Assembly (NCBI GenBank): GCA_030688025.1
Contig: JAUYJL010000018.1
Span: 1-42,179 of the forward strand
Direction of reading: 5' to 3'
Source of the DNA: Candidatus Peregrinibacteria bacterium
GTDB taxonomy: Bacteria > Patescibacteriota > Gracilibacteria > UBA1369 > LOWO2-01-FULL-3
Length of the DNA stretch: 42,179 nucleotides
In this document: one piece after another, positions 4,338 to 7,924 of the stretch
Layout: every line of letters starts with the position of its first letter
Numbering within the stretch: the first letter of the stretch is position 1
The notes under the pieces: model-generated
Seen by the model: only the letters and a program-made list of their open reading frames with translations
Database searches by the model: none
Told to the model about the DNA's origin: nothing
Position numbers and translations under genes: made by a program

Positions 4338-5579
4338 TTATGGGAGCAAGTTTTTAAACCAGCTCTTCATATTGTTCAGCCCTTTCTTTAAATTTAGGCC
4401 CTTTAACCCCATTCCTCCATGTGGTCTGCCTTCAAATCTTGATCCCCAAATCAAAAGTCCTATTGCTGTTGCATAGGCAGGGTCGTCAATTTTGTCCACA
4501 ACTCCGTCGTAATTTTGAGGGAATCCAATTTGGGCAGGAAGATTTAGTATTTCGCGTGCAAGGTCTATTATTCCTGGCATTTTTGCGCCAGCTCCCGTAA
4601 GAATTGCTCCGGCAGGAAGCATTCCGTCTCTGTGAATTTTTGTAAGTTCGTCTTTTACTAATAGTAAAATTTCGTGATATCTGGCCTGAATAATTTCTAC
4701 AACTTGTCTCTTTGATACGACATGAACGTCGATTTTGCTCAATAGTGAGAGGTCGATCACTTCTCTGTCATTTACGTCTTCAGGAATTACGCTTCCGTAT
4801 TCGATTTTTAGTTTTTCTGCTGTGTCTATAGACGTGCGAAGACCGATTGCTATGTCATTTGTGACGTTTTCTCCTCCGACTGGAACCATTGATGTGTGAA
4901 GAAGTGCTCCGTCTTCAAAAACGGTGACAGATGTTCCGCCGCATCCAATGTCTATAACCACGACGCCAAGCTCTTTTTGACGCTTTGAAAGAACAGCTTC
5001 GGATGGCGCGAGTGAATTTGGGATGATGTCGTCAATGTCCACTCCGGATTGAAGTACGCATTTTTCAAGATTTTTGATAGTTGGATCGAATCCTGTAATA
5101 ATATGTGTTTCAACTTCGAGGCGAATTCCGGTCATTCCGACAGGATATTTGATGCCCTTTTGTTCGTCTACCGTGAATGTCTTTGGAATAATTCTTAGGA
5201 TTCTTCTGTTGCTTGGAATTGTTACCGCTTGCGCTGCTTCTATCACTCTGTCCACGTCGTCTTCGGAAATCTCATTTTCGGCTTGTGAAACAGCGATAAC
5301 CCCTCTCGAATTTAGAGATTCTATGTGATTTCCGCCAATTCCTAAAAAGATATGGTTTATTGGTTCTCCCGCCATTCTTTCGGCGTCTTCAAGTGATGCC
5401 GAGATACTGTTTATTGTTTCTTCAACGTCTATGACCGCTCCTTTTCTTAGCCCCGTTGATGGAGCTATTCCCACGCCTATAACATTTGTAACCGGAGACT
5501 CATCGTCTTTTACACCAACAACCGTTCTTATTTTTGAGCTACCGATGTCCAGGCTGGCAATAATTTTTGACCTTGCCAT
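4338..5579 (-). CDS. ftsA: Cell division protein FtsA
   Basis: The 413-residue actin-like ATPase tethers FtsZ to the membrane and recruits the divisome. The N-terminal phosphate-1 motif IIASLDIGSSKIRTVVG, the SHS2-type 1C region with GVIAVSQAENEISEDDV, the phosphate-2 motif VVIDIGCGGTSV and the adenosine motif GAILTGAGAKMPGI are all visible. The C-terminus LKKGLNNMKSWFKNLLP is an amphipathic helix that fits the membrane-targeting sequence of the family. ftsZ follows on the same strand. Its own promoter at 5620-5648 lies just after the palindromic element at 5657-5835, which separates it from the exonuclease gene. Confidence 0.97.
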   Translation of the reverse strand: MARSKIIASLDIGSSKIRTVVGVKDDESPVTNVIGVGIAPSTGLRKGAVIDVEETINSISASLEDAERMAGEPINHIFLGIGGNHIESLNSRGVIAVSQAENEISEDDVDRVIEAAQAVTIPSNRRILRIIPKTFTVDEQKGIKYPVGMTGIRLEVETHIITGFDPTIKNLEKCVLQSGVDIDDIIPNSLAPSEAVLSKRQKELGVVVIDIGCGGTSVTVFEDGALLHTSMVPVGGENVTNDIAIGLRTSIDTAEKLKIEYGSVIPEDVNDREVIDLSLLSKIDVHVVSKRQVVEIIQARYHEILLLVKDELTKIHRDGMLPAGAILTGAGAKMPGIIDLAREILNLPAQIGFPQNYDGVVDKIDDPAYATAIGLLIWGSRFEGRPHGGMGLKGLNLKKGLNNMKSWFKNLLP

Positions 5580-5648: not shown

Positions 5649-5656
5649 ATCAAAAA

Positions 5657-5835
5657 AAATTGTTCGGGCCAGTATGCGGGCGGGGGAAATATTTATTTGA
5701 AATTGATGTTATCATTTGTCAGTCCTAACATGTACGGACTGACAAATATTGACTGATCATGATCAGTCAATAAATAACATAAGTAATTTCAAATAAATAT
5801 TTCCCCCACCCGCCATAGATCGGCTCGAACAATTT
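5657..5835. repeat. T-shaped nested palindromic element A
   Basis: Outer arms: AAATTGTTCG (5657-5666) with CGAACAATTT (5826-5835), then 27-nt arms at 5678-5704 and 5785-5811 with one mismatch. Inside are two side hairpins. Hairpin 1 has 11-bp arms (5715-5725 and 5736-5746) closed by the loop TAACATGTAC. Hairpin 2 is a perfect 26-nt palindrome (5747-5772) that begins TATTG and ends CAATA. On the minus strand a T8 run (5659-5652) overlaps and follows the outer stem, so it may also end the exonuclease transcript. The same plan recurs at 7366-7512. Confidence 0.93.
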
Positions 5836-6754
5836 AAAATAATGATTGTTGTTCAACAGAGTTTTCTGCGCGGGCGCGATCTGAATGATTATTGAAGTTT
5901 GTTAATTTTGCGATTAAGCTTTTGAATTCGAATTCTTGAAATAGTGAAATGATTTTTTCTTTGTCATATGCGTGAGAAATACAGGCGTCGATGTCGAGTG
6001 TGACCGGCACACCTCTGACTATTGTTGCGAGATGTAGACTTTGGAATGCGGAGTCTTTGTCTATAGACAATTTTTCCTTTAATTTGCCTTCGATTTCGTC
6101 GATGTGTCTATATATGTTGTCTATTGTTCCATACTTTTGTAATAGCACTAATGCAGTTTTGTCGCCGACGCCATTTACCCCTTTTATATTGTCAGAGCTG
6201 TCGCCTTTTAGGCCTTTTAGCTCAGGGATTTGTTCAGGAGTAAGTCCGTATTTTGCGAATACTTTTGGGATATCGTAAGTGATTGTTTCCGCGATTCCTC
6301 TGACTGGCGTGTAGACAAAGGTTTTTTCGCTGACAAGCTGGATCGCGTCCATGTCGCCGGTGACTATATAGGTGTAGACATCGTCAGATTTTTCGGCTTG
6401 TGTCGCTAGAGTTCCCAAAACATCGTCAGCCTCAAATCCTTCTTTTTCGTAAATCGGAATGCCGAATGCTTCAACTACTCGACGAATCATCGGGATTTGC
6501 TCGTAGAAATCGTCAGGCGCTTTTACTCGCGTTGCTTTGTATTCTTTGTACTCTTCGTGACGAAAAGTCGGGCCTTTCAAGTCGAAAGAAACTGCGATGA
6601 AGTCCGGATGTTCTTTATTTAAAATATTTAAAAGCATTGATGAAAAGCCATAGACTGCGTTTACCAAAGTTCCTTTTGAAGTTTTGAATGGTGGGATTGC
6701 GTGATATGCGCGGTGCATGATTGCGTTGCCGTCGATGAGTATTAATTTCGTCAT
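5834..6754 (-). CDS. 5'-3' exonuclease / flap endonuclease (PolA N-domain type, stand-alone)
   Basis: The 306-residue protein matches the N-terminal 5' nuclease domain of DNA polymerase I, which removes RNA primers and 5' flaps. Visible acidic metal-site segments are D8 in LILIDGN, GFEADDVLGT, TGDMDAIQLV and the helix-hairpin-helix region GDSSDNIKGVNGVGDKTA. No polymerase domain follows, so this is a free-standing enzyme of the YpcP/ExoIX kind in length. The last residues EQQSLF resemble a beta-clamp-binding motif (consensus QLSLF), which suggests recruitment to the replication clamp. The stop codon sits at the right end of palindromic element A. Its promoter overlaps the divergent promoter of the next gene. 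Confidence 0.93.
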   Translation of the reverse strand: MTKLILIDGNAIMHRAYHAIPPFKTSKGTLVNAVYGFSSMLLNILNKEHPDFIAVSFDLKGPTFRHEEYKEYKATRVKAPDDFYEQIPMIRRVVEAFGIPIYEKEGFEADDVLGTLATQAEKSDDVYTYIVTGDMDAIQLVSEKTFVYTPVRGIAETITYDIPKVFAKYGLTPEQIPELKGLKGDSSDNIKGVNGVGDKTALVLLQKYGTIDNIYRHIDEIEGKLKEKLSIDKDSAFQSLHLATIVRGVPVTLDIDACISHAYDKEKIISLFQEFEFKSLIAKLTNFNNHSDRARAENSVEQQSLF

Positions 6755-6784
6755 TATTTCAGGGTTTTGTCAAGAAGTAGTATG

Positions 6785-6813
6785 TCGACATTTGCCCTAT
6801 TATAGGGTATAAT
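6785..6813 (+). promoter_or_regulatory. Promoter of the 6841 gene with internal palindromes
   Basis: TCGACA (6785-6790), a 17-bp spacer and TATAAT (6808-6813). The spacer contains CCCTATTATAGGG (6795-6807), an inverted repeat that could be an operator. Confidence 0.55.
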
Positions 6814-6827
6814 TTCCTAATTAACAA
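6799..6827 (-). promoter_or_regulatory. Divergent promoter of the exonuclease gene
   Basis: On the minus strand TTGTTA (6827-6822), a 17-bp spacer and TATAAT (6804-6799). It overlaps the plus-strand promoter, so the two genes probably compete for polymerase. Confidence 0.5.
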
Positions 6828-6840
6828 AAATAAAAACAAA

Positions 6841-7359
6841 ATGAAAACCAAACCTGTAGACCTACTTATCAAAGACAAATCAGAGGCGAAGAACAAACTT
6901 TCTTCAATGCTGAAATTCCACATAAAGAAGCCACTTATTGCGCTTTTTGTAGACAAGGAGTTGAGTGAGATGGAAGAAAGAAATTTGACGATTATTTTGG
7001 ATGGAATAAAAGATTTGGAGGCGACTGTCATCGCGATTGCGGACACGAATTCTGAAATTTTTGCTGACGTAAAAACGATGGAATATAACAGAATGAACAG
7101 ACATTATCTTCTTGAGGCGGCGGACATTGCGCTCGTATTTTCTTTTACTGACGTAGAAGAAATTCTTGCTAATGGAATTATCCCCGTAAGTTACGAAAGG
7201 CCGGAAGTGAAAAATTATGATCCAAATCATGAAAGCGGAAATGCTTTCATTTATAAAACAGCTTCGCCTTGGAGTGTTTTCGCGGCATTAGTGAGGGCAG
7301 TAGAAACTTTCAAATTTCCATACGACTGGAAACACATTATCAGACAGGGGTTGATATAG
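6841..7359 (+). CDS. Conserved hypothetical, resembling a glycosyltransferase C-terminal half
   Basis: The 172-residue protein has no clear family by eye. An N-terminal charged helix (LLIKDKSEAKNKL) is followed by alternating strands (PLIALFVDKE, LTIILDGIKDL, ATVIAIADTN, ADIALVFSFTDVEEIL), as in a Rossmann-like fold. The C-terminal segment GNAFIYKTASPWSVFAALVR resembles the end of GT5 glycogen/starch synthases, where a GFVF-type strand is followed by a helix and a Trp. It is far too short to be a full GT-B enzyme. It may be a relic or a small nucleotide-sugar-binding protein. It is divergent from the exonuclease gene and followed by palindromic element B. The leader lacks a Shine-Dalgarno motif. 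Confidence 0.7.
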   Translation: MKTKPVDLLIKDKSEAKNKLSSMLKFHIKKPLIALFVDKELSEMEERNLTIILDGIKDLEATVIAIADTNSEIFADVKTMEYNRMNRHYLLEAADIALVFSFTDVEEILANGIIPVSYERPEVKNYDPNHESGNAFIYKTASPWSVFAALVRAVETFKFPYDWKHIIRQGLI

Positions 7360-7365
7360 TTGCAC

Positions 7366-7512
7366 TTATTTTCGCACAGGTATATTTGATTTTTTACTCC
7401 GTTAAACAATTTGCTCAAGCTAACGTGTACGCCCGAGCAAATATTGGATGCACGTGTGCATCCAATAAGTTTAACAAGTCATAAAAAATCAAACATACCT
7501 GTGCGAAAATAA
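7366..7512. repeat. T-shaped nested palindromic element B
   Basis: Outer 31-nt arms 7366-7396 and 7482-7512 match with one mismatch; GTTAAAC (7401-7407) pairs with GTTTAAC (7469-7475). Hairpin 1: ATTTGCTC (7409-7416) with GAGCAAAT (7435-7442), an inner GC/GC step, and the loop TAACGTGTAC. Hairpin 2: 26 nt at 7442-7467 with 12-bp arms, beginning TATTG and ending CAATA. Compared with element A at 5657, the stems differ in sequence, but the joints CAAATATTG and CAATAA and the 10-nt loop are kept. It lies between two convergent genes. Confidence 0.93.
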
Positions 7513-7540
7513 ACTTTATTCTATCAACCTATGTCGTCTA

Positions 7541-7924
7541 TTAGTTTAAGCTTTCCGGAGAGGAATTAGTGCTACCTTCCGTCGTGATGCTTTTTATTGT
7601 CTCGATTATGTCTCCCAGATTGATGTATTTGATGATATCAAGTCCCATCGCTTTACCGACTGTTCCGACAATTACTGTCGAAAGGATTGTGATGATAAGG
7701 CCGATAATAGCGTATCGAATTGTGGAAACGGCTGATTTGATTTTGTCTTCGGCTCCTCCTGAAAGGATGAAAGATATTCCTCCCATAAATATAAAAACCA
7801 CGGATAAGAATCCCGCAACAATGATTGCGTAAGCAAGGCCTCTGTTTATTATTTCGAGTACTTGATAATTTTGTGCCGCTTCAATAATACTTTGAGACTC
7901 AGCGTATGCGGTTGGGAAAAACAT
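7541..7924 (-). CDS. Small T4SS-type pilin / two-helix membrane protein
   Basis: The 127-residue product begins with a short hydrophobic leader (MFFPTAYAES), followed by an amphipathic stretch and two hydrophobic segments: YAIIVAGFLSVVFIFMGGIS at about residues 31-50 and YAIIGLIITILSTVIVGTVG at about 71-90. The short loop SGGAEDKIKSA lies between them. This layout matches the small pilin family linked with type IV secretion (VirB2/TrbC-like) that is common in CPR genomes. No other secretion genes are adjacent. The C-terminal 30 residues are polar. It could serve as a pilus subunit or simply as a membrane protein. Confidence 0.75.
   Translation of the reverse strand: MFFPTAYAESQSIIEAAQNYQVLEIINRGLAYAIIVAGFLSVVFIFMGGISFILSGGAEDKIKSAVSTIRYAIIGLIITILSTVIVGTVGKAMGLDIIKYINLGDIIETIKSITTEGSTNSSPESLN

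What the first reader, a model, noticed from the sequence alone, without database searches (positions are those of the whole stretch)
5657..7512. A family of T-shaped nested palindromes with compensatory stem changes
Elements at 5657-5835 and 7366-7512 share one plan: a long outer stem, a first side hairpin with a 10-nt loop, and a second 26-nt palindrome. Unpaired joints and the loop are kept (TAACATGTAC and TAACGTGTAC; CAAATATTG; CAATAA), while every stem has a different sequence yet still pairs. Independent repeats with paired changes mean selection for the fold. The layout recalls the AAV terminal repeat in plan only. The elements may be targets of a replication, recombination or nuclease protein that reads folded DNA, or large RNA terminators. 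They are not integron attC sites: the GTTRRRY and RYYYAAC boxes in element B are in the reverse order.
Basis: partly seen in the sequence, partly recalled or inferred. Interest (0 to 1): 0.88.

Follow-up and report, generated by a model that had tools for sequence, protein, structure and literature searches.

The report
T-shaped single-strand-folding repeat of Peregrinibacteria
Two odd double-palindromes in this window belong to a previously unlisted family of dispersed T-shaped DNA repeats in a group of uncultured, tiny-genome bacteria, and the way their sequences change points to a DNA strand that folds during replication rather than to an RNA.

Summary
Elements A (5657-5835) and B (7366-7512) are two of at least 12 copies in this genome and of about 70 copies in 20 of 353 genomes of its class, all Ca. 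Peregrinibacteria and near relatives. The loop TARCDTGTAC and the CRTG tip of the second hairpin are almost fixed; all 27 cap base pairs covary (588 double against 27 single changes). Copies sit at gene 3' ends and the stem usually starts at the stop codon. Evidence favours DNA over RNA: G.T wobble pairs are nearly absent; the strand carrying GTACRTGTTA folds better in 47 of 53 copies, whichever way the neighbouring gene is transcribed; cap orientation follows GC skew (46:8; 7 of 7 in one single-contig genome). Filled and empty sites show insertion; one clean case carries a 19-nt inverted copy of the target flank. The hairpin nuclease SbcD was not found in any of the family's 30 genomes. Best reading: a mobile or formerly mobile repeat whose bottom strand folds into a T during replication, related in principle to REP/IS200 and attC hairpins but a member of no known family. 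No mobilising protein was found; that is the main gap.

The parts
5657..5835 (+). Element A: T-shaped foldback repeat between ftsA (4338-5579, -) and the 3' end of a 5'-3' exonuclease gene (5834-6754, -); outer arms 5657-5670/5822-5835 and 5676-5705/5781-5813
5706..5712 (+). A inner 7-bp stem, 5' arm (pairs with 5774-5780)
5714..5747 (+). A hairpin 1, 12 bp, with conserved loop TAACATGTAC at 5726-5735
5747..5772 (.). A hairpin 2, 26-nt exact palindrome with CATG tip (5758-5761)
7366..7512 (+). Element B: T-shaped foldback repeat between convergent genes 6841-7359 (+) and 7541-7924 (-); arms 7366-7396/7482-7512
7343..7535 (+). Wider decayed palindrome around B; the right copy (7521-7535) matches in inverted form the coding end of the left gene (RQGLI-stop)
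7401..7407 (+). B inner 7-bp stem, 5' arm GTTAAAC (pairs with GTTTAAC 7469-7475)
7409..7442 (+). B hairpin 1, 12 positions with two mismatches, loop TAACGTGTAC at 7421-7430
7442..7467 (.). B hairpin 2, 26 nt, arms of 12 nt exactly complementary, CGTG tip
5649..5661 (-). A-run on + (U-tract for the exonuclease transcript) directly outside A's stem; A could also terminate that transcript, but such tracts are not general in the family

Best explanation
A and B are copies of a short, non-coding, dispersed foldback repeat (unit about 130 nt, extended by locus-specific arms) of Ca. Peregrinibacteria. Shown here: a conserved T-shaped cap with near-fixed loop sequences; covariation in every cap stem; copies in orthologous, different and empty sites; insertion at gene 3' ends; cap orientation tied to GC skew; better folding of one strand (bottom, loop GTACRTGTTA) whatever the transcription. 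Inferred: during replication the bottom strand is exposed or enters as single-stranded DNA and folds into the T; an unidentified protein reads the GTACRTGTTA loop and/or the CAYG tip and moves or joins the folded strand; 3'-end snap-back synthesis at the hairpin copies one flank in inverted form, building and renewing the long complementary arms. Lack of SbcCD probably lets such hairpins persist. Effects on neighbouring mRNA ends would be secondary.
For: Family and spread. Covariation in 27 of 27 pairs, 588 double vs 27 single changes, 93.4 % paired vs 33-37 % when slid. Wobble test: cap helices G.T 1.0 %, A.C 1.4 %, against 7.9 % G.U and 0 A.C in 36 tRNAs of a relative. Outer arms: 58 A.C vs 20 G.T on the cap-defined top strand, i.e. 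wobbles lie on the bottom strand. Bottom strand more stable in 47 of 53 (RNA parameters) and 42 of 50 (DNA parameters) copies, p < 2e-6; 18/20 in same-strand, 18/20 in convergent and 6/8 in antisense contexts. Orientation vs GC skew 46:8 (p = 1.4e-7), also 17:4 among convergent sites; G007: 7 of 7, with the sampled chromosome uniformly skewed. C-to-T bias on the G-rich strand would give the opposite mismatch excess. Filled vs empty sites: e.g. groES-groEL spacer 31 bp in G001 but filled in G000 and G002; the C14 site carries a 19-nt exact inverted copy of the right flank (permutation p < 5e-5 over 18 sites). G006: near-identical caps on different arms. SbcD not found in 30 of 30 genomes, control rings in 13 of 14.
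Against: No transposase, HUH protein or other mobiliser is linked, and no autonomous copy was seen. The inverted target copy is unequivocal at one T site; at most sites it is absent, decayed or not separable from chance. GC skew also reflects gene direction, so the tie to replication is indirect. Related copies are not fully independent in the sign tests. Active mobility was not observed; dispersal could be old.
Confidence: 0.6

Rival explanations
1. A structured 3'-UTR RNA: a large terminator or mRNA-end protector whose loop is read by a protein.
For: The stem starts within -12..+15 nt of the upstream stop codon in 31 of 40 same-strand or convergent cases; divergent sites are rare; A has a U8 tract on the exonuclease strand; very stable as RNA.
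Against: Folding bias follows the cap and not the transcript: in 18 of 20 same-strand contexts the non-transcribed strand folds better. Wobble pairs are nearly absent on the sense strand. T-tracts after the stem are near background (4/20 vs 10 %). Orientation flips at the same gene between species. No Rfam family matches at a meaningful level.
Confidence: 0.15
2. A selfish palindrome maintained without a dedicated protein: replication template switching creates and perfects the arms, and copies spread by rare ectopic snap-back synthesis in cells without SbcCD.
For: Arms are locus-specific and perfected with few single-sided changes; several other cap families share the same arm style; one outer stem carries a T cap in G000 and a different cap in G001; quasipalindrome template-switch mutation is known (PMC7202029 abstract); SbcD not found.
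Against: Loop 1 is invariant at 8 of 10 positions in 65 copies whose stems are saturated with change, and hairpin 2 keeps a CRTG tip; a sequence-blind process does not explain this.
Confidence: 0.15
3. A host-used chromosomal site (for example for segregation, recombination or replication control) that reads folded DNA and is oriented by replication strand, like Chi or KOPS in logic.
For: Orientation follows GC skew; fixed loops.
Against: Only about 8-14 copies per Mb, often clustered; patchy in the family (16 of 30 genomes), absent from near-complete relatives; sites not conserved between sister species.
Confidence: 0.07

Closest known systems
REP/BIME sequences and their RAYT (TnpA-REP) Y1 HUH nucleases
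   Same: Dispersed extragenic palindromes at gene ends, multi-subfamily, read as folded single strands (PMC6006769).
   Different: T shape with two hairpins and long locus-specific arms; no 5' GT[AG]G foot identified; no Y1 transposase in the own genome or in most carriers.
IS200/IS605 single-strand transposition
   Same: Single-strand hairpins and orientation tied to replication strand (PMC6006769).
   Different: No TnpA, no left/right end pair, and an inverted copy of the target flank at one site.
Integron attC sites
   Same: Function through a folded bottom strand, with loops and joints conserved while stems vary (established knowledge; papers listed).
   Different: No conserved R/L boxes, T shape, dispersed among housekeeping genes, only generic tyrosine recombinases seen.
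Repetitive/double hairpin elements of mitochondria (RHE, DHE)
   Same: Short mobile-looking double hairpins in intergenic DNA with complementary stem substitutions (PMC2800124).
   Different: Different organisms, no shared sequence known; loop conservation and strand bias not reported there in the passages read.
MITE-like foldback elements
   Same: Small, non-coding, terminal inverted repeats; in G007 the T cap sits in a ~300-bp repeat with ~20-bp inverted ends.
   Different: Outer arms are locus-specific in most copies and no direct target duplication was seen at T sites.
AAV terminal repeat
   Same: T-shaped plan with two side hairpins on a stem.
   Different: Not a genome end; no Rep-binding repeats or Rep protein; likeness of shape only.

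Membership tests
REP/RAYT | Dispersed extragenic palindromes in many copies | tested here: met
   11-12 in own genome, 7-14 in genus members
REP/RAYT | Cognate Y1 (PF01797) protein in the genome | tested here: not met
   0 matches in G000, G001, G003, G007; present in only 4 of 30
REP/RAYT | GT[AG]G tetranucleotide at the hairpin foot | tested here: not met
   No such conserved foot in the printed alignments, by inspection
Integron attC | RYYYAAC ... GTTRRRY boxes in order, conserved | tested here: not met
   Inner stem varies freely in all 7 pairs
Integron attC | One strand (bottom) is the folding strand | tested here: met
   47 of 53 copies fold better as one and the same strand; strand naming here is by loop sequence
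Integron attC | Dedicated IntI integrase linked | tested here: inconclusive
   PF00589 proteins in 29 of 30 genomes with or without elements; IntI not told apart from Xer
Known structured RNA (Rfam 15) | Match above a gathering score | tested here: not met
   Best matches far below gathering scores, long-hairpin models only
Intrinsic terminator | U-tract directly after the stem | tested here: not met
   4/20 same-strand sites vs 10 % background; A itself has one on the minus strand
MITE / DNA transposon derivative | Inverted ends with direct target-site duplication | tested here: not met
   No direct duplication at T sites; an unrelated cap family shows a 4-bp one
AAV-type ITR | Located at a linear genome end with a Rep protein | tested here: not met
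   Internal to contigs, between housekeeping genes; Rep itself not searched

The most novel reading that the evidence does not exclude
A new mode of DNA mobility: a folded single-stranded T hairpin, read by an unknown loop-specific protein, is joined to the replicating chromosome with fixed strand polarity, and its 3' end copies the adjacent flank by snap-back synthesis, leaving an inverted target duplication. Several unrelated cap families in the same SbcCD-lacking bacteria use the same route.
Probability: 0.25. Interest if true: 0.9.

Novelty: new variant of a known kind. Interest (0 to 1): 0.72.

Why it matters
Mobile or repeated elements that act as folded single strands are known from few systems (IS200/IS605 and REP, integrons, some phages). 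This would add one from the candidate phyla radiation, built on a T-shaped cap with near-invariant loops and with arms that can be copied from the host site. It gives a concrete handle (a 10-nt loop, about 70 copies, filled/empty sister genomes) for finding the protein and testing strand-specific folding at forks, and it suggests how lack of a hairpin nuclease lets palindromes flourish.

Tried and rejected
Rfam: only weak matches to long-hairpin models. Viral contigs: no exact match of the loop pattern. Y1 transposase, tyrosine recombinase and reverse transcriptase: none tracks the elements. Kissing between the CRTG of loop 1 and the CRTG tip of hairpin 2: the R letters looked perfectly correlated in 7 copies, but this broke down in the larger set, so it is kept only as an idea. 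Inverted flank copy as a universal rule: rejected; clear at one T site and one site of another cap family. attC boxes in element B: coincidence of a variable stem. Literature search for such repeats in Peregrinibacteria: nothing relevant.

Full report
Check of the observation. The window is the whole of contig C31 (42,179 bp) of a 1.18-Mb, 98 %-complete genome. Both elements are present as described and fold far better than shuffles. The plan from outside in is: outer arms; asymmetric joint; 7-bp inner stem; hairpin 1 (12 bp, 10-nt loop closed by C-G); directly abutting hairpin 2 (26 nt in A and B). A lies between ftsA and the end of a 5'-3' exonuclease gene, B between convergent genes for a protein without Pfam match and a pilin-like protein.

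Family. Pattern searches of the own genome gave 7 copies. A covariance model from them found 11 strong copies in this genome and matches in 16 of 60 relatives; a model from 58 sequences gave 12 here, up to 14 in genus members, 16 of 30 genomes of the family, 20 of 353 of the class, all within one order, and nothing outside the family among 380 genomes drawn over the phylum. A scan of 84,980 species for an exact loop-1/loop-2 pattern hit only records named Peregrinibacteria, Peribacteria, one Gracilibacteria, one Patescibacteria and one unnamed bacterium; viral contigs gave none. The models miss at least one subfamily: a plain inverted-repeat scan found two more T caps in G001 (C6:32994, C3:37695), so counts are lower bounds.

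Conserved and variable parts. In 65 copies the loop is T-A-A/G-C-A/G/T-T-G-T-A-C, 8 of 10 positions invariant, and hairpin 2 ends in CATG or NCATG in most (the motif helped detection, so this is partly by construction). Every one of the 27 cap pairs shows changes on both sides: 588 double-changed cells against 27 with one side changed, 93.4 % paired against 33-37 % when partners are slid (the alignment was fitted to the model, so these numbers lean towards it). Orthologous A in G000 and G002 shows paired changes in the outer arm (GGGGGAAAT/ATTTCCCCC to GGGGAAGAT/ATCTTCCCC); B in G000 and G001 has different but pairing stems throughout.

DNA, not RNA. If a transcript were selected, G.U should be common and A.C rare, as in the 36 tRNAs of G001 (62 G.U, 0 A.C of 783 pairs; ARAGORN may itself disfavour A.C). 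In the cap helices G.T and A.C are equally rare (13 and 18 of 1326, three poorly pairing columns left out). In the outer arms A.C outnumbers G.T 58 to 20 on the strand that carries TAACRTGTAC, meaning the wobbles lie on the complementary strand. Folding energies agree: the bottom strand is more stable in 47 of 53 copies (RNA parameters) or 42 of 50 (DNA parameters), and this holds whether the upstream gene is on the same strand (18/20), convergent (18/20) or opposite (6/8). The strand preference is thus a property of the cap and not of the transcript. Cap orientation follows local GC skew in 46 of 54 copies and in 17 of 21 convergent sites; in G007, one contig of 998 kb with negative skew in all 20 sampled windows, all seven copies lie on the minus strand. 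The mutational bias that makes a strand G-rich (C to T) would create G.T on the top strand, opposite to what is seen, so the bias is not mutational in that simple sense. That skew marks the replication strand is established knowledge; that it does so here is inference.

Placement and insertion. In 31 of 40 same-strand or convergent contexts the strict stem starts within -12 to +15 nt of the left stop codon; divergent spacers are almost unused. Sister genomes lack the element at many sites: A (73-bp spacer in G001), C14 (overlapping stop codons), groES-groEL (31 bp), G002:C3:5504 (convergent genes about 6 bp apart). The groES-groEL spacer is filled in G000 and G002 by the same subfamily in opposite orientation with unrelated arms. 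At the C6 site G000 and G002 carry different subfamilies and G003 keeps the left half of one next to the other. In G006 near-identical caps sit on different, well paired arms. Alignment of subfamilies shows a shared unit of about 130 nt with arms outside it being locus-specific.

Origin of the arms. At C14 the empty site reads GTGTAA|TTACTTCTTCTCCTCTTCC and the filled site GTGTAA-GAGGAGAAGAAGTAATT...AATTACTTCTTCTCCTCTTCC: a 19-nt exact inverted copy of the right flank, which is the coding end of the right gene. At B the right arm holds an inverted, decayed copy of the coding end of the left gene (GGCAGGGGCTTATCTAAGAGGGCTAG is best kept in G002). One site of another cap family (G000:C15:79860) shows 13 nt. 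Over 18 filled/empty sites the match of arm to inverted flank exceeds that to flanks of other sites (mean 8.0 vs 6.2, none of 20,000 permutations), but only two sites are individually clear. A snap-back extension of a folded 3' end, or off-centre opening of a hairpin-capped end, would both give this; I cannot tell them apart. Why stems stop at stop codons may be that re-templating of arms is free in spacers and purged in codons (inference).

Permissive setting. SbcD (TIGR00619) was not detected in any of 30 family genomes, while 13 of 14 control genomes ring. SbcCD cleaves hairpins formed by long palindromes in E. coli (PMC4245961 and PMC3315005, seen as abstracts). Long palindromes in G000 and G001 fall almost entirely into a handful of cap families, so this is a broader habit of these genomes.

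What is not shown. No mobiliser was found: Y1 transposases are absent from the own genome and most carriers, tyrosine recombinases are universal, reverse transcriptases do not track. Activity, protein binding and single-strand folding in cells are inferred. The sign tests use related copies. Interest is set at 0.72: a real, unlisted family with unusual DNA-level signatures, with an unproven mechanism.

Noticed in passing
G001 (L165 4153-4258, L144 9136-9242, L138 6264-6364 and 16955-17061, L171 7011-7113); G000 (L208 7682-7788, L209 919-1023, L212 19860-19965, L223 10732-10841): A second foldback family with a ~50-nt cap (bottom-strand consensus GAACGCATTGCGTTC...GAAGCTTAAGTTC) on locus-specific arms; faintly attC-like and also more stable on one strand.
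   Followed up: partly
G000 C6:37928-38050, C32:46152-46245, C30:76586-76707, C7:37864-37987; G001 C2:118401-118522, C1:157854-157948: What look like further cap families on long arms; C7:37864 is a clean insertion with a 4-bp direct duplication TTCA.
   Followed up: partly
G000 C15:55630-55781 and G001 C2:127011-127113: Orthologous outer stems carry a T cap in one species and a second-family cap in the other, so caps can be exchanged within a stem.
   Followed up: partly
G007 (PGYE01000001, 998,424 bp), L180-L199: GC skew is negative in all 20 windows sampled around a single-contig genome, with no origin/terminus switch; suggests unusual replication or gene strand bias. A Microgenomates genome with odd strand disparity is reported in PMC7143001.
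   Followed up: partly
Family of the window's genome, 30 genomes: SbcD not detected in any of them.
   Followed up: yes
G001 C5:5319-5376 (L138): Looks like a T element that lost its cap: stem and unit ends kept, centre missing.
   Followed up: no
L039, L051, L073-L077 (G007): Seven similar ~300-bp repeats with ~20-bp inverted ends that contain the T cap plus further side hairpins.
   Followed up: partly
window 6841-7359 (+): Conserved 172-aa protein between exonuclease and pilin genes with no Pfam match.
   Followed up: no
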